From positions 706,739-770,738 of the forward strand of contig CAUYUJ010019882.1 in the NCBI GenBank assembly GCA_963575745.1: 64,000 bases of DNA. The letters run 5' to 3'. The stretch is from Prorocentrum cordatum (taxonomy: Eukaryota > Sar > Dinophyceae > Prorocentrales > Prorocentraceae). Below are positions 320-64,000 of this stretch, piece after piece; position 1 is the stretch's first letter; each line of letters opens with the position of its first letter. The notes beneath the pieces were generated by a model, which did not search any database, was not told the origin of the DNA, and saw only the letters and a list, made by a program, of their open reading frames with translations. The translations under genes were made by a program, and so were the position numbers.

Positions 320-817
320 CCGAGCGCTCAGGACTGTCGATGGCTCGCGCGCGCCTGCCACCTCCCATCCGAGCGATCAGGACTGCTGGTGGGCTGCCCA
401 CTTCCCACCCGAGCGCTCAGGACCGTCGATGGCTTCCCGAGCGCTCAGGACCGTCGATGGGCCACTTCCCGCCCGAGCGCTCAGGACCGTCGATGGCCCA
501 CCGCCTGCCACCCGAGCGCTCAGGACCGTCGATGGCCTCCCGAGCGCTCAGGACCGTCGATGGCCTATCGCCTGCCACCCGGCCGAGCGTTTAGGACAGT
601 CGATGGCCCCCGACTTGCCATCCGAGCGATCAGGGCCGTCGATGCCCCCCCCCGCTTGCCACCCGAGCGCACAGGATTGTCGACGATGCCCCCCCGCCAG
701 TGAAACTTGCAACCCGAGCGCTCAGGACTGTCGATGCCCCCCTCCCCCCTACCGAGCGCTCAGGACTGCCGATGGCCATCGCCGCCTGCCATGCGACCGA
801 GCGTTCAGGATTGATGG
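320..817. repeat. Minisatellite, GAGCGCTCAGGACCGTCGATGG core
   Basis: About 15 degenerate copies of a ~22-bp core are joined by variable spacers such as CCCGCCTGCCACC, giving an irregular period of about 27-45 bp. Open frames across it are by-products of the repeat and are not called as genes. Confidence 0.85.
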
Positions 818-12265: not shown

Positions 12266-12494
12266 TACCGTTAATACTAATGTTGCTTTCCTAGGGGCTC
12301 CAACTCCTAGGTAGGGTCGCACTGGGATAATGTCATATCCTCTTATATATAGAATGTGTATATACACGCGTGCATAAACGCGAATGGGCATAAATGCATG
12401 GCACGGCAGTCGGAGGAAAAGAGAGGCGCAGTGGGGAGGGGTGGAAGGAGGACGCCAAGCACCCAAGCACCCTGCTACGTCTAGGTAAGCAGAC

Positions 12495-14377
12495 CGGAAA
12501 AGCCCGAAATCGTGGTTCCCAGCTCTGGCTGGCGCCCCTGGGACCCACGGCGGCCCCGAAGATGGCGGGAACCACGATTTTGGAGAGATCCAGGCCGGAA
12601 AAACTCCGAAATCGTGGTTCCCAGCTCTGGCTGGCGCACCTGGGACCCACGGCGGCCCCGAGGATGGCGGGAACCACGATTTTGGAGAGATCCAGGCCGG
12701 AAAAGCCCGAAATCGTGGTTCCCAGCTCTGGCTGGCGCCCCTGGGACCCACGGCGGCCCCGAGGATGGCGGGAACCACGATTTTGGAGAGATCCAGGCCG
12801 GAAAAGCCCGAAATCGTGGTTCCCAGCTCTGGCTGGCGCCCCTGGGACCCACGGCGGCCCCGAGGATGGCGGGAACCACGATTTTGGAGAGATCCAGGCC
12901 GGAAAAGCCCGAAATCGTGGTTCCCAGCTCTGGCTGGCGCCCCTGGGACCCACGGCGGCCCCGAGGATGGCGGGAACCACGATTTTGGAGAGATCCAGGC
13001 CGGAAAAGCCCGAAATCGTGGTTCCCAGCTCTGGCTGGCGCCCCTGGGGCCCACGGCGGCCCCGAGGATGGCGGGAACCACGATTTTGGAGAGATCCAGG
13101 CCGGAAAAGCCCGAAATCGTGGTTCCCAGCTCTGGCTGGCGCCCCTGGGACCCACGGCGGCCCCGAGGATGGCGGGAACCACGATTTTGGAGAGATCCAG
13201 GCCGGAAAAGCCCGAAATCGTGGTTCCCAGCTCTGGCTGGCGCCCCTGGGGCCCACGGCGGCCCCGAGGATGGCGGGAACCACGATTTTGGAGAGATCCA
13301 GGCCGGAAAAGCCCGAAATCGTGGTTCCCAGCTCTGGCTGGCGCCCCTGGGGCCCACGGCGGCCCCGAGGATGGCGGGAACCACGATTTTGGAGAGATCC
13401 AGGCCGGAAAAGCCCGAAATCGTGGTTCCCAGCTCTGGCTGGCGCCCCTGGGGCCCACGGCGGCCCCGAGGATGGCGGGAACCACGATTTTGGAGAGATC
13501 CAGGCCGGAAAAGCCCGAAATCGTGGTTCCCAGCTCTGGCTGGCGCCCCTGGGGCCCACGGCGGCCCCGAGGATGGCGGGAGAGATCCAGGCCGGAAAAG
13601 CCCGAAATCGTGGTTCCCAGCTCTGGCTGGCGCCCCTGGGACCCACGGCGGCCCCGAGGATGGCGGGAACCACGATTTTGGAGAGATCCAGGCCGGAAAA
13701 GCCCGAAATCGTGGTTCCCAGCTCTGGCTGGCGCCCCTGGGGCCCACGGCGGCCCCGAGGATGGCGGGAACCACGATTTTGGAGAGATCCAGGCCGGAAA
13801 AGCCCGAAATCGTGGTTCCCAGCTCTGGCTGGCGCCCCTGGGGCCCACGGCGGCCCCGAGGATGGCGGGAACCACGATTTTGGAGAGATCCAGGCCGGAA
13901 AAGCCCGAAATCGTGGTTCCCAGCTCTGGCTGGCGCCCCTGGGACCCACGGCGGCCCCGAGGATGGCGGGAACCACGATTTTGGAGAGATCCAGGCCGGA
14001 AAAGCCCGAAATCGTGGTTCCCAGCTCTGGCTGGCGCCCCTGGGACCCACGGCGGCCCCGAGGATGGCGGGAACCACGATTTTGGAGAGATCCAGGCCGG
14101 AAAAGCCCGAAATCGTGGTTCCCAGCTCTGGCTGGCGCCCCTGGGACCCACGGCGGCCCTGAGGATGGCGGGAACCACGATTTTGGAGAGATCCAGGCCT
14201 GAAAAACCCGAAATCGTGGTTCCCAGCTCTTGCTGGCGCCCCTGGGCCCGAGGATGGCGGGAACCACGATTTTGGAGAGATCCAGGCCGGAAAAGCCCGA
14301 AATCGTGGTTCCCAGCTCTGGCTGGCGCCCCTGGGGCCCACGGCGGCCCCGAGGATGGCGGGAACCACGATTTTGGA
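12495..14377. repeat. 101-bp minisatellite, 19 copies, each with a hairpin
   Basis: CGAAATCGTGGTTCC recurs at 12505, 12607, 12708 and then every 101 bp to 14298. Copy 11 (13516) is 14 bp short and the copy at 14209 is 12 bp short. Two subtypes alternate (GGGACCCACG and GGGGCCCACG). Within each unit AAATCGTGGTTCCC pairs with GGGAACCACGATTT across about 50 bp. Because 101 leaves remainder 2 on division by 3 and the unit has no stop in any frame, long ORFs (up to about 1,000 codons) run through on both strands; they are by-products. Confidence 0.95.
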
Positions 14378-15553
14378 GTTCTCTGCTGTTCTGCTGCTGC
14401 TCTCTGCTCTGCTGCTGCTCTGCTGTTCTGCTGCTGCTCTCTGCTGTTCTGCTGCTGCTCTCTGCTGTTCTGCTGCTGCTCTCTGCTGTTCTGCTGCTGC
14501 TCTCTGCTGTTCTGCTGCTGCTCTCTGCTGTTCTGCTGCTGCTCTCTGCTGTTCTGCTGCTGCTCTGCTGCTGCTGCTCTGCTGCTGCTGCTGCTCTCTG
14601 CTGTTCTGCTGCTGCTCTCTGCTGTTCTGCTGCTGCTCTCTGCTGTTCTGCTGCTGCTCTCTGCTGCTCTCTGCTGCTGTTCTGCTGCTGCTTCTCTGCT
14701 GCTGCTCTGCTGTTCTCTGCTGCTCTGCTGCTCTGCTGTTCTCTGCTGCTCTCTGCTGCTTCTCTGCTGCTCTCTGCTGCTCTCTGCTGCTCTGCTGTTC
14801 TCTGCTGCTTCTCTGCTGCTGCTCTCTGCTGCTTCTCTGCTGCTCTCTCTGTTCTCTGCTGCTCTCTGCTGCTCTCTGCTGTTCTCTGCTGTTCTCTGCT
14901 GCTCTCTGCTGCTCTCTGCTGTTCTCTGCTGTTCTCTGCTGCTCTCTGCTGTTCTCTGCTGCTCTCTGCTGTTCTCTGCTGTTCTGCTGCTCTGCTCTCT
15001 GCTGCTCTCTGCTGTTCTCTGCTCTCTGCTCTCTGCTGTTCTCTGCTGCTGCTCTCTGCTGTCTCTGCTGTGCTGCTGCTCTCTGCTGCTTCTGCTGCTG
15101 CTCTCTGCTGCTCTCTGCTGCTCTCTGCTGCTCTCTGCTGCTCTCTGCTGCTCTCTGCTGCTCTCTGCTCTCTGCTGTCTCTGCTGCTCTCTGCTGCTCT
15201 GCTGCTGTTCTCTGCTGCTCTGCTGCTGTTCTCTGCTGCTCTGCTGTTCTCTGCTCTCTGGTGCTCTCTGCTGCTCTCTGCTCTCTGCTGCTCTCTGCTG
15301 CTCTCTGCTGCTCTCTGCTGCTCTCTGCTGCTCTCTGCTGCTCTCTGCTGCTCTCTGCTGTTCTCTGCTGCTTCTCTGCTGTTCTCTGCTGTTCTCTGCT
15401 GTTCTCTGCTGTTCTCTGCTGTTCTCTGCTGCTCTCTGCTGTTCTCTGGTGCTCTCTGGTGCTCTCTGGTGCTCTCTGGTGCTCTCTGGTGCTCTCTGCT
15501 GCTCTCTGCTGCTCTCTGCTGCTCTCTGCTGCTCTCTGCTGCTCTCTGCTGCT
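14378..15553. repeat. CTG-rich microsatellite, 1.2 kb
   Basis: CTGCTGCTCTCTGCTGTT-type repeats grade into CTCTCTGCTG, with a short CTCTCTGGTG patch near 15450-15500. It begins exactly where the 101-bp array stops (TTTTGGAG|TTCTCTGCTG). Leu/Cys/Ser/Ala-only translations in three plus-strand frames are repeat artefacts. Confidence 0.95.
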
Positions 15554-32454: not shown

Positions 32455-32770
32455 GCATCCCCCGAGCCCTAACCCTGGCTTGAAACCCCCATCCACTAAG
32501 ACTCTAAGCCTCGCAACCTCAACCGAACCCTGACACGCGAACACCCTAACCCCAGCACCCCAAACCCTGATCATAGCCTCCTAACCCTAACACCCCAACG
32601 CGCTAATGTCAACACCTTAACCCTAAACCGCTCACACCCTAACCCTAACACCCTACGTACCCCTAACACCATAAACCTAACATCCGAATACACTAGCACT
32701 CCTAAACCCCAGCACTCTAACCGTAGCACCCTAACCCTAACACCCTAACGTCTTAGCACTGACACCATGA
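32455..32770. repeat. Interstitial telomere-like CCCTAACAC repeats
   Basis: CCCTAACCCTAA, ACACCCTAACCCTAACACCC and variants (CCCTAAACC, ACCCCAGCACCC) fill about 300 bp on the plus strand. It resembles a degenerate telomere-type array (CCCTAA/CCCTAAA) mixed with a CCCTAACAC nonamer. It could be an interstitial telomeric relic or an independent microsatellite. Confidence 0.6.
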
Positions 32771-51979: not shown

Positions 51980-52478
51980 CGGGACAGCATGTTGAAAACG
52001 TGCCGACCTCCATCCGTGCAGCTGCTCGAACATCCTCGAACGAGTGTGCGCGGCGCTCCAGCAAGAAACGCACTCTGAAAACAATCAGCATTCCATCCGT
52101 GTAAGAGCTTGAGACTCTGAGCATAAAAGGGATTCCCCATATTTCCCATATTTCCCACATTTGCAATCCGCTGACCACCAACAAAAATTATCCCGGCAAA
52201 GCAACCTAACAGCGATATGTAGTAGCATAGCTGGAGGCATGCAGCAGCGGCAACACTCGCAGTTTGATTTTTTCCCGTGCAAAGCGTGCAGGCTGAAAAG
52301 CATTGCAGACACGCGCAGGCTGAAAAGCATTCCGCGACACGTGCAGGCTCACCGCGCACAGCTGCACACGAGCGCAGGCTGAGAAGCACCACGCGCATGC
52401 AGGCTGAGAAGCACCACGCGAATGCAGACGGACAGACTGAACAGCACCGCCACAACGCAACCTGCATCTCATGGCTCC
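51980..52478. other. Downstream flank of the helicase element
   Basis: Contains one or two dispersed-family units (AGTGTGCGCGGCGCTCCAGC at ~52043), repeated CCCATATTTCCCATATTTCCC (52135-52160), and a run of four 19-bp-motif copies (52286, 52316, 52373, 52402). A Helitron 3' end (hairpin plus CTRR) would be expected on the minus strand here, but I could not fix one. Confidence 0.4.
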
Positions 52479-53243
52479 TCAAGCTCGCGCAGGCCATCCC
52501 AGTTGCTGTCGGGCCTTCGCGCAAGCGATCTTCGTCGCGGCAATCTTGTCCGTGAAGAGCTCGGCAAAGGCCTTGGCGATCTGTTCCGGGGGGCCGGATT
52601 CGATGATGCTCCGGTCAGGCAAGCCGTGGCTCAAGAGTTGGTTGAAGCTTCTGGGGCGCGACAGGCTGACGTAGTAGGCAAGCCAAATGGACTCCTTCTT
52701 GAGTCCTGGCGGAAACGTCCAGTGCACGATGAAGCCTGGGTCCGTCGTCTTGCCCTGGACGCCATGCAGAGTCCCCTGCTTTTTGGGCAGCACGGTCAAC
52801 TGCGTCCTGGACACCGCGATGGCCGGGCCACCTGTCTTCGCTTTGAACTTCCAGGGGCGCGCCTGCGGGGTGATCGCGAGCACTCCGCGCAGGTCGGGGC
52901 CGGCAGGCTGAGAAGCACTGCCAGCTGTCACCGGCGCGGCCTTCAAGAAAAGTTCATCGCTGTCATCGATCTTGACATAGACGGCCTTTGGCATGTAGTA
53001 GAGTACGACCACGCCGTCCGAGACAATGGACGGGCGGCCCTCCACCGGAGGCTCCAGAGCGTGCAGCTCTATGCCTACCACTTTGCCTGGCGCGCCACGG
53101 ACATACTTCGGCGGCAAGACGGATTCTGTCAGGATGACCTCCATGCCAACGAAGAGCGGCAGCAGCCCCGGCATTTTTGCGGTAGCGCCGATGTTGGGCT
53201 CCGCGCGCATCTCGTCGTAATCAGGCTTCGCGAGGCGCGCAGC
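52479..53243 (-). pseudogene. PIF1-like helicase, C-terminal part
   Basis: Reads LAKPDYDEMRAEPNIGATAK, PLFVGMEVILTESVLPPKYV, RGAPGKVVGIELHALEPP, VYVKIDDSDELFLKAAPV, then TLHGVQGKTTDPGFIVHWTF (corresponding to the HxxQG motif V of PIF1 helicases) and IWLAYYVSLSRPRSFNQLLS (motif VI region, normally V-A-x-S-R). The protein ends KARQQLGWPARA at the stop beginning at 52481. The copy of the 19-bp motif at 52906 encodes SASQPAGPDLRG. Downstream flank is repeats. Confidence 0.75.
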
Positions 53244-55060
53244 TGGTCTGTCGATTGCTGGGACGTAAAGAGCAGCTGGCCAGCATCGTGCGCATCAAGC
53301 TTGGCCTGTGCATGCATGGCGTAAGAGACGATGCGCCACTCATAGGCCGACTCGTACCAGCCTCGTGCTGCACGCAACCGAGGGTCCCACTGAGGTGGCT
53401 GAGCGGCTTGGCTGCTGCTGGCAGCTGGCTGAGCAGCACCGCTAGAGCTAACGACCTCTGTTTTGACGATCGCCTGCCAGCTCTCGTCAGAGATCTTTTT
53501 TCCGCCTGGAGTTCTCATGGCGTGGAGAACCTCGAGTTGCAACGGGTCTGTAAAGCGCTGCATCTGCACGAAATCGATGACGTACTCGATGTCGGCGAGC
53601 AACTTCCTACCCTGTTGGTGTTCGTAGGATTGGCCCGCGTGAGGCGCCAGCAGGGAAGCGGTGGCGGGGACTGGCGGCAACTGGTAGAAGTCTCCGCACA
53701 AGATCTTCACAGGCATGCGTCCCCACGTCTCCTGCGGGCGCATGTACTTCGTGGGGTCCAGGTTGTAGCGCAACGCCCTGCCGTAGGTCGTGCGCAGTGC
53801 ATCTGCATGCAGCAAAGGCCCCGGCACAGCACCCAGCTCATCGATCACGTCGACGCCGAGTGTGCCTGTGAGGCGATCCAGCTTTTTCTGCGTCTGTGGC
53901 GTCAGGCGCAGCCTGGCTGTCTGCATGGAATCCGACATGAGCAGGCCATTGGAGGAATGCATGGTCCTGCCGCGCGGGCCGAGGTTGTGTGCGGCGTGGT
54001 TGGACTGCGCTTTGCCGAGGTACCCCTGCTCGCCGAAGTAAGTGATGGCCATCGGCTCCACCACTTTGGAGAGGGTGCGCGTCTTGCCGACACCGCCACC
54101 ACCGAGCCAGATCGCTCTGTGGTTGCCTGTCGCGGACGCCACGGGGAGGAGATGCGTTGTCTTGTCTGGTCTGCCGTCAAAACGTTTCTGCAGAGACAAC
54201 GCAAACAACGCCACCGCGTCAATCTGCTCCTCCGTGCAGTGGGCATCAGTGACGAGCTTCCACGCAACAGCCGCCGGGCCCTGCATGGCCAAGAGCTGCG
54301 GAACGAGTTCTGGTTGGGCGTCCTCGGCAGCAGGCTGAGGAGCACCGCTGGGGAGCCAGTCGTCCGCAGCATCGGGCAAGATCTCTCCATCCGGGCTCGC
54401 TTGCTTCTTTTGGAGCGCAATGCTTTGCCGCTGTAGGGCGAGCATGTCAGAAAAGGTCTCGCCCAGCCGCGTGCCCTGATGTTCCCGCGCGCCGCTGCTG
54501 GCTGGCAGTGCAAAGCTGGGCTGCAGCATGCCGCTGTACGCTCGGTCGAGGTTCTTCAACTGCTTATCGGCGTAGCTGAGGCGGCCCTTCTGGTCCAAGC
54601 GCTGCAGTTGGTCTTGCTGTAGGGCCAGCTCGGTTGCTCTGACGTGGTCCCGCAGCGGAAACCGGGAGATCTCGGTAATCTCGGCGTCCTCCACGTCCTC
54701 CTCTACGTCGCTGCCGCCGCCTCCACCCACGTCAACGAGCTCCAGCGGGACTCGCCCCTTGACCCCTTCGGCATCGCTCGCGGAGTCTTCATCCGCCTCG
54801 AGGTGTGCAGTTGTTGCTGGCCGAGGCTTAACCCGCGCCTCCGCCGCGAGGTCCACGTGCGCCAGCACGTCTCGCGCCACGGTCGCGCAGAACTCCGCCA
54901 GGGTGCACTGTTCCTCGTGCCACCGGCAATGGTGGTCACTGAAGGCAAGGATGCGCCGTGCCGCCTCCGCTGGCATGCGCCGCGCCAGCTGGGACCTTGC
55001 GAAGTGCGCTAGGCTGAGGAGCACCAGCTCGCCCTCCTCGAGGTTCGCCCGGGGCTCTTT
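53244..55060 (-). pseudogene. PIF1-like helicase domain, main part
   Basis: Starts KEPRANLEEGELVLLSLAHF and HEEQCTLAEFC, then a linker, then an SF1 helicase core of the PIF1/RRM3 family: AIWLGGGGVGKTRTLSKV (Walker A, ~54105-54080), QSNHAAHNLGPRGRTMHSS (motif Ia), VDVIDELGAVPG (Walker B, ~53850-53826) and VKILCGDFYQLPPVPA (motif III, ~53700-53671), then DFVQMQRFTDPLQLEVLHAM. ATP-dependent unwinding is the family role. At ~53243 the frame shifts by one base between QQSTDQ and LAKPDYDEMRAEP. Three or four 19-bp copies add SGAPQPAAEDA and SGAAQPAASSSQAAQP. Confidence 0.8.
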
Positions 55061-57643
55061 CAGCTTCGGAGAAGAGGGTCGTGTCCGCGAGCACGAGCCT
55101 CTTGCGGGCCAGGCGACTCCTGGAGTCTGCGCGCGCTGCCAACACGTGGATCTCCGCGCACCGAAGCCGCCACGCCCGCTCGAACGAGTATGGGCGCACG
55201 GCGGGGCAGTCGCAGTTCCTCAGCATATGGCTGTACTGAGTAACGCAGCCACAAGAGAGGGGACACTCGCACGCCCAAGGCGTGAAGAGGAGGGCCTTGA
55301 AGAGCGAGTTCTGCTCGGGGTCCTGTGCCCATGTCGGGCACTGGAAGCCATCGATGGTGGGCGCGGAACTCCGCGTCAACCGGACCTCCTGCATGTACCG
55401 CGGAGCCAAGACGTAGTGGCTCTCGAAGGCGAAGAATCGCGGTCCAGAAGCTTTGACCCGGCTCGGCTTCAGGACTCGCCGGACGTACATCCTGTAGACG
55501 TAGTACGGCATGGTCTGCAGGCGAGGGCCTCTGTGGGCGTAGTCGTCGGCCGTGTTCGTGCTGGTGGTGCACACGTGCATGTCCTCGCACTCCGCACCGC
55601 CACCTTGCTCATCACCAGCAGGAGTGTCTCCAGGAGGCTGAGGAGCACCGCTGGTGTCACCTGCTGCGTCCTCCTCCTCGTTGTCGGCGTCAGGGATCTG
55701 GATGCGGACTGCTTGTATTGGCACCTGATCATTATGCGTCTCCCCGCCCGAACCTTCATGGTTTAGCAAGCGTTTGCACTGCTGGCAGGCCCACTGTAGT
55801 TGTCTCGTGAAGAGCCGCACATTGTGGTGCGACTGGAGGCAGTCGCCGCCTGTGAGGATATGCACGGCCACCTCCGTCGTGGAGAGCCAGAAGCACCGGT
55901 TCGCCATCGACGCCAGGCGGATACAGACCCGCCGAGCGCGGCGAGCGAGATCCTCGCGCGTCCGGCCCCGTTGGGCCAGCGTCTGGTCCTCGCCATCAGC
56001 GCCGCCCTCACTGAGCACCTTCCGGGCTTCCTCCTCCTTCTCGTCCCTCTCCTGCTGCTCCAGACGCTGCATGCCGGTGAGCATAGACTGGAAGAGCGGC
56101 GTCATGGACTCCATCATCTTGCCCTGGTACTTCGTGATGTAGAAGTCCATGGAGAAAGCCTTCTGGAAAGCAGCTTGGAAGCTCTCCACGACAGATGCAT
56201 CTGTCGGATGCAAGGAGCCACAACCGTAGAGCCACTTTTTGCGGCCGCCGAGTTGTTTGGATGAGCGCAATGCGATTGCCGACTCTGGGTTCTTCATGCT
56301 GGCCGTTTTCCTGGTAAGCCTTCTGCGCTTGGCCAGCTGAGCTGGGGCGGCCGCAGGCAGTCCGTCCTGGGCAGGCTGAGGAGCACCACCAGGCTGAAGC
56401 ACTTTTGCTGCCTCGGCAGACTCGTCAGGCGCGCACATCAAGAACTGGAAATCCACGTTGCACCGGCTGGTCACTTGAGAGACGTCGTTGCTGGAGCTCC
56501 TGAACGGCTGGTCGCGTTTGACCTGGCAGCGGCACCGCTGGTTGCGGTCATCAGAGAAGTCGATGAACGGAGTCCGGACCAAAGGCTTGCCGCGCCGACG
56601 CACTCGCTTGGTGCGGCCTGCTAGACATAGCTGCTGGATGCGAAAGAACCAGAAGCGGCACGACGGGGTTCTGTTCGAGCGCAGACTCTCTTTGGCCTCG
56701 AGCTTCTTCTTGACGTACTTGACGCGCGTCTCGGTGCAGTCGTGCTCGTGGTTGGAGCAGATGTTGCAAAAGAAGTCATGGCTAAACGCTACCGCCCAAG
56801 CCTCCGCATCTGCGGTAATCTCCTCGACCGAAGCCGGCGAGCCATCGGGCTTGAGGACTTCCTGAATCGCTCCATCCTCGTTCGTCTGGAAGAGGCTAGC
56901 ATGGCTGGCTGCCATGGCAGGCTGAGGAGCGCCACCTAGCTGCCCGAAGCTAGTTCGTTGGCGGTAGCTTGGAAACGTAGACTGAAAGGCTCCTGTGAGC
57001 GGGAGGCCCCGGTACGCTGCAGCGCCGATTGCAGGCATCCGGTTCTCTGCGGCTGCCCGCGCTCGCTCCTCCACCAGGTGCGGCTGCTCCACTGGCGGGC
57101 CGAGAGGCACCTCGTCGCGCAGGGTGCCGTCCTCCTCTTCCCCTCCGTCCATGCGGCTCTGTCGTTGCTGCCTGGCTGTGAAAGGCTCTGGCGCGACGTC
57201 AGGAAGCCCCAGCTGCCGTGCGGGCTCGTTGGCAGCTTCGTACTGCACGGTCTCCGCGGTGGAAAGAAGGGCAGTTCGCAGCTCCCGAGCGGCGGTGCGC
57301 AGGCCTCCGACCACTGCCGACCGCAGCCACGCCATCGTAGGCCCGATGACGCTGTGGCCTTTGCCGTGGCCGTGCGTGAAGCCCCGACCCTGTGCTTCGA
57401 AAGGCGCTTGCACATCAGTGGTGCCTGGGGCCACGCACGGCTGCAGAGTCGCTGCCACGTCGTCCTCCGTTGTCACCGCCTGTCGGGCTAGCGTTGTGCG
57501 GCCAACAAACAGGCGCTCTAAGCCGATGATGTAGCGGTAGTGAAGCTCCGTCATCAACAGGAAGAACTTGGCCTGCGCCCGCGGGTCTGCTGCCACTATC
57601 TGGTGCATCCGCTCCAGAGAGGCTACATGGTCGGAAAACGAGA
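55061..57643 (-). pseudogene. Rep/helicase polyprotein, Rep (HUH) and Cys-rich region
   Basis: Uninterrupted for about 860 codons. It starts RMHQIVAADPRAQAKFFLLM and TELHYRYIIGLERLFVGR. The HUH-type motif FEAQGRGFTHGHGKGHS lies at about 57345-57395; HUH histidines hold the metal in rolling-circle endonucleases. Then come TARQQRQSRMDGGEEEDGT, ALTGAFQSTFPSYRQR-like sequence, [14 protein letters not shown] with KYVKKK (a candidate Tyr/Lys nicking motif), [10 protein letters not shown], a bipartite basic region, MDFYITKYQGKMMESMTPLF, RLASMANRCFWLSTTEVAVH and TNTADDYAHRGPRLQTMPYY. Four 19-bp-motif copies add GGAPQPA-type peptides in frame. At ~55060 one base is gained or lost (GAAGCTGAAAGAG), shifting to the helicase frame. 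Confidence 0.75.
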
Positions 57644-57821
57644 CTGGAGGAAATAAAAAAAGAAAAGAGAAAGGAAGAGATGATAAGGACAAAAACCGGA
57701 AAGGGAGAGAAGAGAGAAAAAAAAAAGATATACGAGCTCACAAAAAAAAAAAAAGGAAATAAAGAAAAAAAAACACGAAAAACGGAAAACAGGAAGAAAA
57801 TCGGAAAAAAAAAAGCTGGAC
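57644..57821 (-). other. Intron-like T-rich segment in the Rep/helicase gene
   Basis: On the minus strand GTCCAGC opens a 178-nt stretch of poly-T/pyrimidine sequence ending TTTCCTCCAG. Removing it joins DLR and SFSDHVASLERM through an ATC codon with frame preserved (A|gtcc...ccag|TC). It is strikingly T-rich against its GC-rich neighbours and lies about 10 nt after a copy of the 19-bp motif. It could be a real GT-AG intron or a low-complexity insertion. Confidence 0.5.
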
Positions 57822-58435
57822 TCCGCAGGTCAGGGCCAGCAGGCTGAGAAGCGCCGCCGGCTCTGGCCACCGCGCCAAACGCGCCCCCGCGAATGTCTAA
57901 GTGGCTCCGCTTTCCGGGCCCTTCGTGGAGTTGGAGGACCAACGGGCTGTACGCGTCTGCGAAGTTCGGTGTGACGAAGAAGCTGGCCGCGCCGAACTTG
58001 AGGTTGTTGCCGCGCCCGTCGAAGCGGAGTGCGGTTTTCCGCCCCTCCGTGCCAGGGACATCGGAAGTGCTAAGTAGCAACGTCCTGAGGGCAGTCTTGA
58101 CCTTGGCAGGCATGCCCGGGCGTGAAATGGCGGAGCCGATGCAGTCGGCCGGCTTAGCGATGTTTAGCGCCTCCATGAAATCCTCCGCCGACGCCTCCGA
58201 CAGGATCTGGAGGTCAGTGCCGAAGCCTTTCCTGCCAATCGCCGCCCGAGTGCCTTTCAAGAGCCGCAGCCGGCGGATCACGTCGCCGAAGACAGCAATG
58301 ATTTCTGGCGAGCTGAAGCGGCTCTGGCAGGCTGCCTCGTAGGGCTCCTCGTCGGTCGCGAGAGAGTACTCGAGCTCCTCCAGGTTGATGAGGCGCCGTG
58401 CGACCTCGAAGGACGAAGAAACGAGACACTGCTAT
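57822..58435 (-). pseudogene. Rep/helicase polyprotein, segment before the intron
   Basis: The frame reads FEVARRLINLEELEYS, EEPYEAACQSRFSSPEIIAV, FGDVIRRLRLLKGTRAAIGR, VKTALRTLLLSTSDVPGTEG, RFDGRGNNLKFGAASFFVTP and NFADAYSPLVLQLHEGPG. This resembles the Helitron helicase-like N-terminal region in which the conserved T-P-N-x-A-D-x-Y-S-P-L stretch precedes the HUH motif. Its start is lost into the 33-bp repeat; its end carries GASQPAG from the 19-bp motif. Confidence 0.7.
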
Positions 58436-58439
58436 GAAG

Positions 58440-58890
58440 ACATGTAAGTCCAAACGCAACCTTGCGTTCAACGGATGAATGTCCAAACGAGACACTGCTA
58501 TCAACACATGTAGGTCCAAACGAGACACTGCGATCAACGCATGTAGGTCCAAACGGGACACTGCTATCAACACATGTAGGTCCAAACGGAACAGTGCTAT
58601 CAATAGATATAGGTCCAAACGAGACACTGCTATCAACATGTGTAGGTCCAAACGAGACACTGCTATCGACACATGTAAGTCCAAACGAGACAGTGGTATC
58701 AGTGGGTGTAGATCCAAACGAGACCCTGTTATCAACACATGTAGGTCCAAACGAGACACTGCTATCAACGCACGTAGGTACAAACAAGACACTGCGATCA
58801 ATGGATGTAGGCCTCCACGAGACACTGCTATCAACACATGTAGGTCCAAACGACACACTGCTATCAATGGATCGACTCCACTATCAACAC
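58440..58890. repeat. 33-bp minisatellite inserted in the Rep/helicase gene
   Basis: About 13 copies of AGGTCCAAACGAGACACTGC, TATCAACACATGT, period 33 bp (TAGGTCC at 58511, 58544 and so on). Since 33 is a multiple of three, the minus strand stays open as 11-residue repeats (DLHVLIAVSRL). It separates ERPMLFEQV from FEVARRLINLEELEYS; the gene resumes in another frame, and TTCGA...GTC occurs on both sides. The core AACGAGACACTGCTATCAAC is also found at 62.4-62.7 kb. Confidence 0.9.
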
Positions 58891-60587
58891 TGGTAGCATA
58901 AGTAGTATTCCTGGGGAAGACCTGTTCGAACAACATGGGCCGCTCCCGCTCGAGGTTCGGCGCGCCGTCCCCGAACCAGAACTCTGTGTAGCACGCCGGC
59001 CAAGACCTGCTGTCGAAAGAACTCAAGGGTTTCTGCGTAGGCACCGATAATGAGTGCGGGCCCACAGCTCTGCACGCGTCTGCTCCTGCTTGCGCTTTCT
59101 CCAGCACCACCTGCGCTCGCTCGTCGAACGAACGAGCAGCGCTCTGTACATCGAGAACCATGCTGCGCATCGTATGCCTGCCGCCCTCGTCGGCAACAGG
59201 CTGAAGAGCACCGCTGCTGTCTGCCGCTGTCGGTGTCACCTCGCTCTTGGCGACGCGTGCTGCCTGCTCCTGCAGCGCCGCCAGCGTGCCTTGCAGCGCT
59301 TGCATCATTCGGACTGGAGCGATGTCATGCACTGGATCCACTGCAACTGTGACCTCTGCCACATTTTCATGCAGGTAGGCCATGTCAGGCTGTTCTGCTG
59401 CTTCTCCGTCTTTGTCTGTCTCTGTCTCCTCGTCAGACTCGTCTCCCGCCTCGTCGTCTCTGCCCACTTCCGGCGCCCTGGATGCTGGCCCCAACAGACG
59501 TACCGGTGCTTTGTCCACACCGTCCACTGGTTGCAGACAGGCTTGGATGTGGTCTGGCACGCCGTCCTCCGGCAGCCGTGTCGGGGCAACATCCTCCCGG
59601 ACGGATACCTCGGAAAAGGTTGCGCACTGCTGCTTGCGCTCCCTCACGATCTGCATATACTCGCCGCGCTTGACTGTTGCCCAGTACGCCTTGTGGAGTT
59701 TGTGCGCGGCGCCCGAGACAACGATGTTCAGAGAGTCCACAAGCGCGCCCTGCTCCGGGGGCAGCTCCATGGTCGGGATTTGCGCCGTGGGCTGGGCGAA
59801 GAGGATAGTGTTGCCCGAGATGCCTTTCTGCTGGACATCCGGAGCGCCCTTGCCGAGGCGGACTTGCTTCCAACAGCGTCGGCCAAGGGGCGCCAGCATC
59901 TTAGTAGCTTTCGAAGCGTTGCGGACGAGCATGAGCTCCCGGCCGATCCAGTCGTCGTTGACCAGGGCGTTTAACGGCATCTTCGGTTTCTTGGCGCACA
60001 GGTCATTGAGGCAATCCCAACAGACCCACACCAACGCGCTGGCATCTCCCACCCCTGCGCACGGAGGCCTCTCGTCCGCAGGCTGAGAAGCTCCGCCGGA
60101 CCTGTCGGCAGCAGGCTGAGAAGCACCGCAGGTTCCCGCCGTTGCTTCTGGTGGTGCAACCACAAGGACTCGGCGGGAGTGTAGCAGCCACCGCCACTCT
60201 GGGTGCTCCGGATGCTGAACGCTGGACGCATGCAGCTGTTCGCACGGGATCAGTGGCCACCGCTGCCTGTACCTGTCCACGTCCAGGAGCTTCTGCACGA
60301 GCTCCGGGGACTGCAAGTAGCGCACCCCGCGGTGCTTCACCAGAGCACGCTTGGGTGGAGCATCTGCCTCGCCATCGGATAGGTCATCATGATCGCTCGC
60401 TGAGTCGGCGCAGTGCTCAAAGACACGCTCCTCCGGCACTGCTCCAAACAGGCTGAGTTTGTGGCGATGCTCCAGGTAGTCTTTCTGCGCACAGACTACG
60501 CAGGCTGCCTCGCTTCGGGGCACCGCCTCGCCGCCCGAGAAGCGGTTGGCCTTGCTGCCAGGGTGACAGAACTGTTGGAAGTAAGCA
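58891..60587 (-). pseudogene. Rep/helicase polyprotein, central region
   Basis: Reads FAYFQQFCHPGSKANRFSGG, EEAACVVCAQKDYLEHRHKL-like finger (C-x2-C; here SEAACVVCAQKD), RQRWPLIPCEQLHASSVQHP, WRWLLHSRRV, CWDCLNDLCAKK, NDWIGRELMLVRNASKATKM and PTMELPPEQGALVDSLNIVV, ending YTEFWFGDGAPNLERERPML. The Cys pairs suggest zinc binding. This is the usual spacer ahead of the Helitron-type Rep region; no catalytic motif is assigned. Three copies of the 19-bp motif (59200, 60080, 60109) add TAADSSGALQPV and GASQPA peptides in frame. The frame runs into the 33-bp repeat at its end. Confidence 0.65.
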
Positions 60588-62057
60588 AATTCTGCACCAT
60601 GATCCTCTTCTCTTGAGCGGTTATCGGCCTGCAGCCAGCGTGCGCCATCAGGTACAGCACCCGTTTGCGGTATTCTGCCTCGCCGGCGTGGTTGCACTGC
60701 TTATGCCGCGCAAAGTCCTCTTCTATTAAGAAATCGCAGTCGCAGAGCTGGCAAACGAGCGGTCCCGTCATGACTGCACGGTTAGAGAAAACGCGCAACT
60801 GGTTCCCCTCTACTTCGCCGCCGGGGACGTAGCAGCTCTTCCCCGCGGGAGCAGCCAACGCTCTCCGCACTCGCTCCGCGTACCTCTGCGCAAATTCCCT
60901 GTGCTGCGCAGGCTGAGGAACACCGCGGCTGGACGCAAGCTCTTTGTAGGTGGCCAGGCGCCGCAGGATTGCCGTGTTACGAATGCCACTCTCCAGCATC
61001 AGCAGATCCTGGTCGATCCTGTTCTGCGCCTCCTCAGCGAACCCTTCCATGGGGTTTGGCCTTTCCTCCGCCTCCGCGATGCGAAGCATTGTTTTGCCAT
61101 CGCTTTCCGCCTGCTGGAGTGCCTGGAGCTCGGCCTCCTGCTCGGGAGAGAACTGCTTGGCCTTCAATCCTTCCCGAACTAGCCAGCCTAGTTGCCGCTC
61201 TGCAACACTACGCCCGGCGGACTCCTTCGGAAAGCGGCCGAGGTCTCGCACCTGCTGCATGACCTCCTCGATCTTCGTCTGCTGCATGAGCCCGTCGGAC
61301 TTCGTATCCGCCTGCTGCAAAGTTTGAAGCTCGGCCTCCTGCTCCGGTGAGAAATGCTTGGCCTTCCGTGTTTTTCGGATGTGCCAAGCCAACTGCCGCT
61401 CTGCAAGCGGGCGTTGAGCGCTCTCCTTCGGCCAGCTGCCGAATTCGCGCACCTGCTGCAGGATCTCATCGGTCTTCTGCTTCCGCTTGAACTCCTCGAT
61501 TGCAGCACGCTGAGCAGCAGCGCTGACGGCGCGTGACTCCTCGAGGTCTTGCAATTCCAACATCACGTCACTAGGAATGCTCTTGCGGTGTTCAAAGAAA
61601 CGTTTGGCCAACTTGTTTTCGGCTCGTGCTTCCTCAGACGTTCCTTTATTTCGGATCGGTATACGACCGAACTGCTTCACGTCCTCGACGAGCGTTTGCA
61701 GAGATCCGCTTAATGCAGAACGCTGAAGGGCAGCGCTGACAGCGGCTGACTCTGAAGGCGTGGCGCATTCGAGGGCTTGCAACTCTACATAACGTCATTA
61801 GGAATGCTGTCGCGGTGGTCGGAGAAACGTTTGGCCAACTTGTTTTCAGCTCGTACTTCCTCGGACGTTCCTTTCTGTTGCTTCGGTATGCGACCGAACT
61901 GCTTCACCAGGTCAACAATCCTTTGCACAGTACCGCTCAACACAGCACGCTGAGGAGGGGCACTGCTCACTGCAGCAGGCTGAGGAGCACCGCTGTTGGG
62001 TGCAGAAACGTCAGGAGCATGGCGCCCAGACCGAGAGCTACCAGCATGCCGCGGCAT
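60588..62057 (-). pseudogene. Rep/helicase polyprotein, N-terminal part (repeats and C2H2 finger)
   Basis: Opens MPRHAGSSRSGRHAPDVS. Four diverged helical repeats follow, each with the pattern V-K/R-Q/E/D-F/L-G-R-I/F-P...E-x-x-L-A-x-x...(S/P)E-x-x-E-L: QFGRIPKQQKGTSEE; QFGRIPIRNKGTSEE; EFGSWPKESAQRPLAE; DLGRFPKESAGRSVAE. The likely role is DNA binding or assembly. Then comes LVCQLCDCDFLIEEDFARHK and a C-terminal H. Between repeats 1 and 2 the frame breaks at ATGTAGAGTTGCAA where repeat 2 reads ATGTTGGAATTGCAA; one lost T explains it. At 60584-60593 AATTTGC (expected AATTTTGC) again loses one T, moving VQN to FAYFQQF. Confidence 0.7.
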
Positions 62058-63045
62058 TACTGTGAACAGTGGGTGCTGGAAAGTTCCTTTGTAAGGATAG
62101 CTCTAGGCAACATGGCTAGGGAGACATTGATCATGATGATGGTGATGAGGGAAATTCGTTGTGGAGGATGTTGGTGATGATGATGATGTGAATCAGTGAT
62201 GTTGATGGTGATGATGATCAATGGCGATGATGATGTCGCAAAAGATCTGCAGGCTGAGAAGCACCGCAGGCCAACGTGAACCAGTCGTGGTGATAGTGAA
62301 GATGGAGGCGGTTCCAGTTAGTAAGATAAACTGCCATGCATTGACGTATGCTGAAAGGAAATCCGGTATCAATGAGTTGATATACAATGAGGTGTCCGAA
62401 AACGAGACACTGCTATCAACGCTTTTATAACTGGAGGAACCTCTGATACCGACACTGCTACGCACGTGGAAGGTGTCTTGAAATGAGGCACAGCCAGAGT
62501 TGATATACAATGAGGCGTCCGAAAACGAGACACTGCTATCAACGCTTTTATAACTGAACGACGTCTGATTTCGACACTGCTACGAACATGGGGGTTGTCT
62601 TGCAATGAAGCACGGCCATGACCTGATTTAGATTCCACAGAAACACATGCAGTAATGTTTTGTTTTTCAAACACCGAAATTCTCTGTAAACGAGACACTG
62701 TGAACGACTGCAGAACAGGCGCTTGTAGCAAAGGAAGTGCAGGCTGAGAAGCACCGCAGGCGAACGTGAATGAATCCGTTGGGCAACGTGAGCACATACC
62801 GAAACTCTGTGCAGGCACTCTCAAGGTAGCCAGGGCAGGCTGAGGAGGAATGCAGGCCGCAAACACTATTCGTGCACCAGACGCCACAACAGTAAATAGT
62901 GCAGGCTGAGAAGCACCGCATAAACAACGAAACTACCAAACGATATGTTTGAGGCAAACCTAGTTGGCATCCCGCAAGGCGCAGGACAAAGATGCTTGCC
63001 ATGTCCAGCAAGCTGAGAAGCATCGCTGACAAGACAGGAGAAAGC
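62058..63045. other. Region between the two minus-strand ORFs, with repeats
   Basis: No ORF of note. It holds ATGATG repeats (62130-62235), four or five 19-bp-motif copies and the ~124-bp repeat described separately. No spliced-leader sequence is visible before the ATG at 62057. Confidence 0.5.
62370..62710. repeat. ~124-bp tandem repeat with AACGAGACACTGCTATCAACGC core
   Basis: GATATACAATGAGGNGTCCG, AAAACGAGACACTGCTATCAACGC, TTTTATAACTG and then GACACTGCTACG...CATGG occur twice (about 62380-62500 and 62503-62625). A third partial core (GTAAACGAGACACTGTGAACG) is at 62686. The core is the same as the unit of the 33-bp minisatellite at 58.4-58.9 kb. Confidence 0.8.
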
Positions 63046-64000
63046 TCACCTCAAGCTTTCTCCTGAGGGGTGACTTTCAAGAATGCGGCACTTCTTGGCG
63101 GATTCCGGCGTCGTGCTCCACTCATTCATCCGCTTATGCTCGCCTGATTGCTGAAGCTCTGTGCGCATCCCCAGTGTTCTCAATTTTTTAATGAAGTACT
63201 GCGCCTCAGACACGACGGAGTCGTCACTGTGGGTCACGCTGTGCACCGTCATGCCATCTTTTGAACAGCCAGTAATGAGCAACAAGCAGACTCTGTGCTT
63301 CGCTCGGTTGGGCGGATCCATTTTGAACGAGAGCAAGTTGTCAACTGAGCAGTGTCCGTGTATCGTCACTGAGTGGGAAGACTCACCGTCAGAAGCGTCC
63401 GTGACACCTGGTGTGGACACGACGAAGCCAGCCGCAGTGGATACGCACCGAGACTTCTGCGTGGTCCGAACGAGAACGACTGCCAAGTGGCAGTTCCGGG
63501 TAAGCTGAGAAGCGTCACCCCCTCCACCCGCTGGTGAGTACTGCACGCGCATGCCGTAGAAGGGACAAGACCGTATCTCAGAGAGCTGCGCCGCGAGCAT
63601 TGCATCCTGGCTCTCGCGGCACTGCTTCAGGATCTCCAAAACGACATTGTAAGACGTATTCGGGGCGTGCGATATCTGAAGCGGTGAAACGGCCACACAG
63701 TCGTGTTGACGAAAGTCCGTTGAGGTGTGTCATCCTGTGCATTCGCAGCCACATTGCGCACGCGTCGTATGATGCGACAATTGCTCAGTGGAGGGAAGGA
63801 GATAGCTTTCTCGTCGTGAACTTTTTTGAATTCTTGCATGCTATCAATGCCAGTCAAGGCGAAGGCTGCCGCTTGGGATACGCCGACTTTGCACGAGCCA
63901 CTGAAATCACGAGCAGTAGTCGTAAAGAAGACGCGCTCGCCTGTGTTCTCCACCACAGAGTCGGCTGGCTCCGGTTCCTCCAGCCTCATCCCATTGACCT
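63046..64000 (-). CDS. Unassigned dinoflagellate-type ORF, 5' end outside the window, one frameshift
   Basis: The frame is open from the window edge: EEPEPADSVVENTGERVFFT, ARDFSGSCKVGVSQAAAFAL, DEKAISFPPLSNCRIIRRVR and QDDTPQRTFVNTTV. At about 63690 coherent sequence continues in the next frame as VAVSPLQISHAPNTSYNVVL, CRESQDAMLAAQLSEIRSCP, FYGMRVQYSPAG, STPGVTDASDGESSHSVTIH and SFKMDPPNRAKHRVCLLLIT, and stops at 63046 after EWSTTPESAKKCRILESHPS. A single missing base explains the break. I recall similar proteins as common in dinoflagellates but know no function. A 19-bp-motif copy (63503) encodes GDASQLT in frame. It may be a companion ORF of the helicase element or a neighbouring copy's end. 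Confidence 0.5.

What the first reader, a model, noticed from the sequence alone, without database searches (positions are those of the whole stretch)
52286..63520. A short (~19-bp) motif inserted over 20 times, often in frame inside a protein-coding gene
GCAGGCTGAGRAGCACCGC and close variants are scattered through 11 kb in one orientation, in both coding and non-coding DNA. In coding DNA they mostly fall in one phase, adding GAPQPA/GASQPAG-type peptides between domains of the Rep/helicase protein. Nothing similar was noticed in the first 52 kb. This resembles protein-inserted palindromic elements of some bacteria but is shorter and not palindromic. Possible meanings: a mobile micro-element spread by an unknown mechanism, an RNA processing or trans-splice signal, or a recombination/gene-conversion site. 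The restriction to the transposon neighbourhood may mean that the element carries and spreads it.
Basis: partly seen in the sequence, partly recalled or inferred. Interest (0 to 1): 0.88.

Follow-up and report, generated by a model that had tools for sequence, protein, structure and literature searches.

The report
Repeated hairpin tags in Helentron genes
A short sequence scattered about 25 times through one end of this DNA is a small hairpin that certain jumping genes of a dinoflagellate-like genome carry many times over, always on one strand, inside and around very different genes, and its base pairing appears to be preserved, so it probably acts as a signal rather than as protein code.

Summary
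In detail: about 25 copies of one motif, all minus strand, at 52,286-63,520, none of that quality in the first 52 kb. It is neither chance nor a simple insertion.

The host region is a Helentron-type rolling-circle transposon (DUF6570 + PIF1-type gene, shared 3' end at 52,187, subterminal inverted repeats, T/T insertion) in a 4.13-Gb assembly that fits Prorocentrum cordatum. 18 of 20 fetched loci of about 10 kb contain the same transposon end on the motif's strand; within 45 stretches 339 strong copies share the majority strand and 0 oppose it.

The new finding is structure. It is an imperfect 23-nt hairpin: 9-bp stem, one bulge (mostly T), 4-nt loop. Across 34 flank-independent sites the first base pair outside the search motif is Watson-Crick in 25 (9.0 expected), in all four types. 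Compensatory cells are 33 against 9.8 expected. In genes a synonymous third base tracks its pairing partner.

So it is probably a cis-acting hairpin selected as nucleic acid, somewhat more likely in the element's mRNAs than in its DNA. Function and binding partner are unproven.

The parts
52187..52213 (-). 3' terminus of the Helentron-type element (GCTGTTAGGTTGCTTTGCCGGGATAAT, then unrelated flank)
   Evidence: 27/27 match; other copies diverge right after it; 14,374 copies genome-wide with up to 2 mismatches in a 20-base piece, control 2
52286..52452 (-). cluster of five hairpin copies past the helicase frame (52286-52308, 52313-52337, 52372-52394, 52397-52419, 52430-52452)
   Evidence: covariance-model matches E=0.0035, 0.084, 1.4e-6, 1e-4, 0.052
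52901..52923 (-). hairpin copy, in frame (S-A-S-Q-P-A)
   Evidence: E=2e-6
53422..53444 (-). hairpin copy, in frame (G-A-A-Q-P-A)
   Evidence: E=2.1e-5
54328..54350 (-). hairpin copy, in frame (G-A-P-Q-P-A); joint best score
   Evidence: E=1.7e-7
55007..55029 (-). hairpin copy, in frame (G-A-P-Q-P-S)
   Evidence: E=1.1e-4
55631..55653 (-). hairpin copy, in frame (G-A-P-Q-P-P)
   Evidence: E=1.2e-6
56369..56391 (-). hairpin copy, in frame (G-A-P-Q-P-A)
   Evidence: E=6.3e-6
56915..56937 (-). hairpin copy, in frame (G-A-P-Q-P-A)
   Evidence: E=1.6e-5
57093..57115 (-). degenerate hairpin copy
   Evidence: E=6e-4
57837..57859 (-). hairpin copy, in frame (G-A-S-Q-P-A)
   Evidence: E=3e-6
59194..59216 (-). 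hairpin copy, in frame (G-A-L-Q-P-V)
   Evidence: E=2.4e-4
60076..60131 (-). tandem pair of hairpin copies (60076-60098 and 60109-60131), 33-bp unit
   Evidence: E=1.9e-5 and 1.8e-6
60906..60928 (-). hairpin copy present here and in L046, absent at the same site in L021 and L038 (net 12 bp)
   Evidence: E=7e-5; alignment A2; L046
61503..61995 (-). four copies (61503-61525, 61716-61738, 61943-61965, 61973-61995) in the linkers of the repeated N-terminal module; 61503-61525 has the compensatory C-G pair at 4/16
   Evidence: E=6.5e-6, 0.1, 9.7e-4, 1.7e-7
62247..62921 (-). four copies outside long frames (62247-62269, 62737-62759, 62833-62855, 62899-62921)
   Evidence: E=2e-7, 7.1e-7, 0.0028, 2.3e-6
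63006..63028 (-). hairpin copy with compensatory A-T pair at 4/16
   Evidence: E=1.2e-6
63498..63520 (-). degenerate hairpin copy with pairs 2/18 and 4/16 changed to T-A and A-T
   Evidence: E=3.3e-4
58214..60697 (-). open frame with DUF6570 of the Rep/helicase-type gene
   Evidence: PF20209 E=1e-6, above the curated cut-off
54936..57692 (-). open frame, middle part of the same gene (no Pfam match)
53129..55024 (-). open frame with PIF1-type helicase
   Evidence: PF05970 E=6.9e-5, 23 bits, under the curated cut-off of 25.9; PDB PIF1 5o6b E=3.2e-5
60496..61782 (-). open frame with repeated N-terminal module that carries the motif in its linkers
   Evidence: no Pfam family above cut-off

Best explanation
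The motif is an imperfect hairpin of about 23 nt (stem of 9 pairs, one bulged nucleotide that is usually T, loop YCTC) that Helentron-type rolling-circle transposons of this genome carry many times on the sense strand of their genes, in coding linkers and in the stretches next to the genes. SHOWN: one strand per element, restriction of the sampled clusters to these elements, and covariation of the stem at flank-independent sites. INFERRED: selection acts on the folded single strand, more likely RNA, so that each element mRNA carries a row of binding sites for one protein (of the element or the host) that handles that RNA, for example for stability, export, translation, or bringing the transcript and the element's proteins together. 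In long frames it nearly always stands in the frame that reads G-A-S/P-Q-P-A, presumably a harmless flexible linker. New copies arise at least partly by small tandem duplications and by duplication or exchange of modules.
For: Strand: in 45 stretches, each turned to the motif's majority strand, 339 strong copies (>=16/19) lie on that strand and 0 on the other; 36 of the 45 hold the transposon 3' end on the motif strand, 0 on the other. Covariation: 134 distinct 19-mers, 35 compensatory cells against 9.9 expected, 0 of 2,000 permutations; at pair 4/16, 15 double changes keep the pair and 1 breaks it. At 34 flank-independent sites, pair 0/20, outside the search motif, is Watson-Crick in 25 against 9.0 expected (0 of 5,000) as A-T 8, G-C 8, C-G 5, T-A 4; pair -1/21 in 19 against 11.9 (p=0.002); nothing consistent further out. 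The count of structure pairs on 33 distinct rows: 33 compensatory cells against 9.8, covariation 0.372 against 0.159, 0 of 500 shuffles, slid structures at most 0.103. RNAalifold alone recovers 6 of the 9 pairs. Negative controls for 0/20 (look-alikes >=13/19): antisense 27 of 109 (25.7 expected), window 1-52,000 8 of 47 (8.3 expected). Coding: in 14 independent sites ending in an Ala codon its third base pairs with position 0 in 10 (4.1 expected, p=0.0005); first Ala codon GCT in 18 of 19 against 19% elsewhere in the same frames. Bulge-less variants at >=16/18: 0, at >=15/18: 6, against 339 bulged at >=16/19. RNA rather than DNA, weaker: G.T cells outnumber A.C cells 56 to 30 at six Watson-Crick pairs, and four gene-less or nearly complete short elements lack it (L026 453-2229 and L032 1329-3272 in oriented coordinates; L073 and L079, which begin within the 5' end sequence).
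Against: No transcript or protein data. The hairpin is not more stable than shuffled sequence (z -0.49 and -0.40 with DNA parameters). Sites were found by similarity to a consensus, which inflates conservation of the inner stem (not of 0/20 and -1/21). Independence of the 34 sites rests on ungapped flank comparison, so some may share ancestry; cells are not independent events. Derivatives with frames about as short as those of the motif-free elements keep it (L024 3245-3998, 148 aa; L028, 127 aa), which weakens the link to genes and hence to mRNA. No binding protein is identified.
Confidence: 0.47

Rival explanations
1. The hairpin acts in single-stranded DNA during rolling-circle transposition: a HUH enzyme of the element (Rep) or another single-strand protein recognises bulged hairpins on the transferred strand, as IS200/IS605 and REP-associated transposases do.
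For: Same strand as the element; a bulged T inside a short stem resembles sites of HUH transposases, whose IS608 member holds an unpaired T17 in a pocket (PMC8266576, passages read). The element encodes a Helitron-type DUF6570/PIF1 gene. Short derivatives keep the motif without a long frame.
Against: 0 of 13 sampled 3' ends have a sense copy (>=14/19) in the last 800 bp, and four gene-less or nearly complete short elements lack it, so it is not needed in cis for transposition. G.T is tolerated more than A.C. The Rep domain itself was not detected by Pfam.
Confidence: 0.25
2. Neutral or selfish dispersal: a short hairpin spreads by tandem duplication, template switching and module exchange among related transposons, and in genes only harmless in-frame sense copies survive. 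Palindrome-correcting mutation would make the arms match.
For: Tandem duplications of 27 and 30 bp between relatives, 17-bp tandem triplet in L026, repeated module in the N-terminal region, a derivative (L034) whose internal deletion joins two motif copies.
Against: Copies outside long frames are also all on the element's sense strand. Correction would remove the bulge and the G.T pair, yet bulge-less variants at >=16/18 are 0 and G.T stays in 25 of 33. Pairing of the variable outer bases at unrelated sites is not expected of a copied insert.
Confidence: 0.18
3. Protein-level linker: G-A-S/P-Q-P-A is a selected flexible or cleavable peptide between domains.
For: Fixed frame in 70 of 77 copies in long frames.
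Against: 100 of 177 distinct copies are not in a frame of 300 aa; synonymous sites are constrained; the synonymous base 20 pairs with base 0.
Confidence: 0.05
4. Motif as recombination or gene-conversion hot spot.
For: Single junctions inside motif copies: L034/L023, L022/L031, L067, L064.
Against: No overall enrichment of alignment ends: 33 of 4,001 (0.8%) against 1.6% of random aligned positions.
Confidence: 0.05

Closest known systems
Helentrons / HINE elements (endonuclease-encoding rolling-circle transposons)
   Same: Rep/helicase-type gene, separate EEP-like nuclease gene in sister elements, 12-bp subterminal inverted repeats, insertion between T and T, many non-autonomous copies with tandem repeats (PMC4067079, passages)
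   Different: A dispersed sense-strand hairpin family inside the genes is not mentioned in the passages seen; no clear 3' palindrome was found
REP sequences and RAYT/IS200-IS605 hairpins
   Same: Short imperfect palindromes with an irregularity in the stem, strand-specific recognition, high copy number (PMC8266576, passages)
   Different: Bacterial, with an adjacent GTAG in REPs; here inside transposon genes, partly coding, one strand only
Rickettsia palindromic elements
   Same: Short palindromic repeats inside protein-coding genes, in frame (recalled; only listing and abstract starts seen)
   Different: Larger and spread over host genes (recalled); here about 23 nt and confined to one transposon superfamily in the sample
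Mitochondrial repetitive hairpin elements (sponges, fungi)
   Same: Dispersed short hairpins, sometimes in genes (PMC2800124, passages)
   Different: Organellar, mostly intergenic; no sense-strand restriction was claimed in the passages read
DNA uptake sequences
   Same: Hundreds to thousands of short motifs with an orientation preference in reading frames (PMC2346458, abstract and passages)
   Different: Both orientations occur; not a covarying hairpin as far as the passages tell
Dispersed RNA packaging signals of ssRNA viruses (MS2-type bulged hairpins; recalled)
   Same: Many degenerate bulged hairpins along one RNA, coding and non-coding
   Different: No capsid or packaging known for Helentrons; analogy only

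Membership tests
Helentron | Helitron-type Rep/helicase gene | tested here: met
   DUF6570 above cut-off; PIF1 E=6.9e-5 by Pfam (below cut-off) and PDB PIF1 E=3.2e-5. The HUH Rep domain itself gave no Pfam match, so only the helicase half and DUF6570 are shown
Helentron | AP-type endonuclease encoded | tested here: inconclusive
   Separate gene in sister elements; low-confidence model (mean pLDDT 49) matches TDP2, CCR4 and DNase I, best E=3.6e-5; no sequence match; not specifically sought in the window
Helentron | subterminal inverted repeats | tested here: met
   5' ACCTAACAGCGA against 3' TCGCTGTTAGGT in sister elements; the window element's own 5' end is not in the window, whose contig ends there
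Helentron | insertion between T and T, no duplication | tested here: met
   5' flank ends in T in 17 of 20 and 3' flank starts with T in 18 of 20 complete elements; absence of duplication was not tested with empty sites
Helentron | 3' palindrome | tested here: not met
   No hairpin better than shuffles in the last 39 nt, z -0.12; longer stretches not folded
Rickettsia palindromic element | freely mobile insert in host genes | tested here: not met
   18 of 18 sampled motif clusters lie in one transposon superfamily
REP/RAYT | hairpin preceded by GTAG and bound by a RAYT | tested here: not met
   No invariant base at -1, 0, 20 or 21 and no common flank in 34 sites; binding not testable
Introner element | intron with splice sites and terminal repeats | tested here: not met
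   The unit is about 23 nt and stands in open frame in genes; removal from transcripts was not testable
Any Rfam family | covariance-model match | tested here: not met
   0 matches up to E=1 in 52,000-64,000

The most novel reading that the evidence does not exclude
Helentrons of this genome tag their transcripts, whatever gene they carry, with a row of near-identical bulged RNA hairpins that a single protein reads, a self-recognition or packaging code for a DNA transposon comparable to packaging signals of RNA viruses, written through protein-coding sequence.
Probability: 0.24. Interest if true: 0.92.

Novelty: new variant of a known kind. Interest (0 to 1): 0.72.

Why it matters
If right, a DNA transposon uses a repeated, strand-specific structured signal that overlaps its protein code and is shared by otherwise unrelated cargo genes. 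That would give a testable answer to how Helentron proteins or transcripts recognise 'self', a ready-made tag for finding domesticated or captured genes in giant dinoflagellate genomes, and a natural case of dual coding (peptide linker plus nucleic-acid fold).

Tried and rejected
Chance and codon usage: rejected. Viral origin: 12 viral stretches hold the 17-mer once each, which I take as chance (no shuffled control was given), and no relative of the helicase was found there. Motif derived from the element terminus: similarity not significant, 12% and 94% of shuffles as good. Recombination hot spot: no overall enrichment. Obligatory cis element for transposition: 0 of 13 3' ends taken from the listing carry a sense copy within 800 bp (two antisense 14/19 matches are at chance level); for nuclease-type elements this reach is just too short (last copy about 800 bp from the end), so the count is weak. 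Greater conservation than flanks in paralogue pairs: 0.91 against 0.80 (69 coding pairs) and 0.94 against 0.85 (71 others), but 0.83 against 0.82 (13) and 0.78 against 0.76 (21) where only one side scores as motif; ascertainment inflates the first two. Structure model of the nuclease is of low confidence. Pfam finds no nuclease family in that frame.

What was left out of counts: draw on 45 oriented stretches (window 52,001-64,000 plus 44 loci; one search used 16 of them); L001-L012 and the overlapping loci L013-L020, L041-L043 and L049 were dropped, and L069-L081 were fetched later and used only. In one search, sites near stretch ends or with N were dropped and 392 sites were reduced to 34 clusters, each shown by its best-scoring copy. 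In one search the pooled figure uses the six pairs among L031, L032, L046, L068 (47 of 51 motif codons identical against 805 of 1,295 elsewhere; pairs are not independent); four pairs with L040, a near copy of L031 with a shifted frame, are not pooled.
Full report
Check of the observation. A scan with up to 3 mismatches finds 21 copies, all in one orientation and all between 52,288 and 63,026; 0.05 would be expected and none of 100 shuffles reaches 21. A wider scan adds degenerate copies up to 63,518; the best in the first 52 kb are two matches of 15/19. Among the 14 most dispersed 11-base words of the window element, all are motif words except those of one tandem array, and none occurs on the other strand.

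Where it sits. The window is G000:C19033:706739-770738 of an assembly of 4.128 Gb in 21,875 contigs, and the contig ends at the window's last base. Size, contig number and the length of contig C1 (3,562,531 bp) fit the published Prorocentrum cordatum CCMP1329 assembly (4.15 Gb, 22,724 scaffolds, longest 3.56 Mb; PMC10666404, passages read); this identification is an inference. The minus-strand gene carries DUF6570 and a PIF1-type helicase, and close copies are numerous (2,609 first-look candidates, the best 70 scored, 94-100% identical).

The motif belongs to one transposon superfamily. Aligning 16 copies of the gene's 3' region shows that copies share a terminus GCTGTTAGGTTGCTTTGCCGGGATAAT followed by unrelated sequence. 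The same terminus lies on the motif's strand in 36 of 45 stretches and on the other strand in 0; among the 20 loci of about 10 kb it is present in 18. With 14,374 such ends in 4.13 Gb, about 3.5% of random 10-kb stretches would hold one. The two loci without it, L021 and L038, carry the same Rep/helicase-type gene. The first 100 listed places of the exact 17-mer form 19 clusters on contigs up to C409; 18 of the 19 were fetched (all but C325; part of the C98 cluster lies beyond its stretch) and all 18 are such elements: 16 with the 3' end, two with the gene body. The 5' ends of sister elements start TACCTAACAGCGA, inverted against TCGCTGTTAGGT near the 3' end, and in 20 complete elements the 5' flank ends in T 17 times and the 3' flank starts with T 18 times. 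These are Helentron features (PMC4067079, passages read); a 3' palindrome, another such feature, was not found. The cargo differs: the Rep/helicase-type gene, a nuclease-like gene whose low-confidence model resembles TDP2, CCR4 and DNase I, repeated N-terminal modules, and a gene with leucine-rich repeats (L029). The motif occurs with each of these.

It is a hairpin. Numbering the sense motif G1 C2 G3 G4 T5 G6 C7 T8 Y9 C10 T11 C12 A13 G14 C15 C16 T17 G18 C19, positions 1-4 pair with 19-16, T5 is bulged, 6-8 pair with 15-13, and 9-12 form the loop; by itself the fold is not more stable than shuffled sequence (z -0.49, same call). Among 134 distinct 19-mers, double changes at pair 4/16 keep pairing 15 times and break it once, and the total of compensatory cells is 35 against 9.9 expected. 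The strongest test uses bases that played no part in finding the sites: at 34 sites whose flanks are unrelated, the bases just outside the motif (0/20) form Watson-Crick pairs in 25 against 9.0 expected, in all four kinds, and the next ones (-1/21) in 19 against 11.9; further out there is no consistent signal. A separate count on the same 34 sites agrees (89.6% of cells paired against 78.1%; 33 compensatory cells against 9.8; 0 of 500 shuffles; slid structures far lower), RNAalifold recovers 6 of the 9 pairs, and the negative controls show no excess at 0/20: 27 of 109 (25.7 expected) and 8 of 47 (8.3 expected).

It is constrained as nucleic acid also inside genes. In 19 independent coding sites the first Ala codon is GCT in 18 (19% of Ala codons elsewhere in the same frames) and the Pro codon after CAG is CCT in 16 of 17 (22% elsewhere); these inner codons are partly biased by the search. 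Base 20 is not: where it is the third base of an Ala codon it pairs with base 0 in 10 of 14 sites, 4.1 expected, p=0.0005. In four nuclease-like paralogues of 56-63% identity to the first, motif codons are identical in 47 of 51 cases and other codons that encode the same residue in 805 of 1,295.

How it spreads. Between related elements, extra copies are often tandem duplications (27 bp, L040 against L036; 30-bp arrays in L029 and L030). One site, window 60,908, differs by a net 12 bp from L021 and L038 and is present, doubled, in L046. Of 519 distinct indel contexts of 9 bp or more between relatives, 28 had the motif on one side only. Most sites are shared by close copies. The data therefore show mostly inherited sites plus local multiplication, not free transposition of a 19-bp unit.

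What it most likely does. The strand, the covariation and the synonymous tracking say that a folded single strand matters. Two single strands exist in the life of such an element: its mRNA and the DNA strand moved by rolling-circle transfer. RNA is moderately favoured because four gene-less or nearly complete short elements lack the motif, because 0 of 13 sampled ends carry it nearby (with the limit noted in Tried and rejected), and because wobble G.T cells outnumber A.C cells 56 to 30. Against that, two derivatives with about equally short frames keep it (L024, L028). DNA remains possible because enzymes of the HUH group recognise bulged hairpins in one DNA strand (PMC8266576). No partner protein is known, so the function is an inference at about even odds.

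Novelty. Short hairpin repeats inside genes, strand-biased gene motifs and multi-copy RNA signals are each known; a one-strand, covarying hairpin spread through the genes of a DNA transposon superfamily was not seen in the listings of the ten searches made. It is filed as a new variant of a known kind, with the bolder reading kept as the novel case.

Noticed in passing
window 58407-58918 (array 58419-58868): A stretch holding an array of 33-bp units (TTGATAGCAGTGTCTCGTTTGGACCTACATG type) interrupts the gene in this copy and, expanded, in L038, but is absent from L021 and L035. Similar units recur in other elements' 3' regions; a possible repeat-born intron.
   Followed up: partly
window 57636-57813: A pyrimidine-rich insertion of about 178 bp, a few dozen bases past a motif copy, is present in this copy and absent from the three copies compared, L021, L035 and L038.
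   Followed up: partly
L069-L081, L031, L029: Several gene-poor sister elements end in long arrays of GGCTGA-type hexamers whose word GCAGGCTGAG is the exact complement of the motif's 3' arm CTCAGCCTGC (12 sense copies in L031, 11 in L029, 0 in the window element). Chance or pairing is open.
   Followed up: no
L025, L036: The nuclease-like gene stands in tandem with a period of about 4 kb, the middle unit being a complete element.
   Followed up: no
L024 3998/3999, L032 3272/3273, L053, L054: Elements sit head to tail: the 3' end of one is followed at once or within a base by the 5' end of the next (GGGATAAT then TACCTAAC), in oriented coordinates.
   Followed up: no
L034 against L023: An internally deleted element whose junction lies inside two motif copies; similar single junctions occur in L064 and L067.
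   Followed up: partly
window 405-774: Another irregularly spaced unit, CCCGAGCGCTCAGGACCGTCGATGG, repeated with varying spacers.
   Followed up: no
window 12490-14378: A 101-bp satellite, 19 copies at 95% match, with an internal word present on both strands.
   Followed up: no
window 32620-32749: An internal stretch of ACCCTAAAC-type, telomere-like repeats.
   Followed up: no
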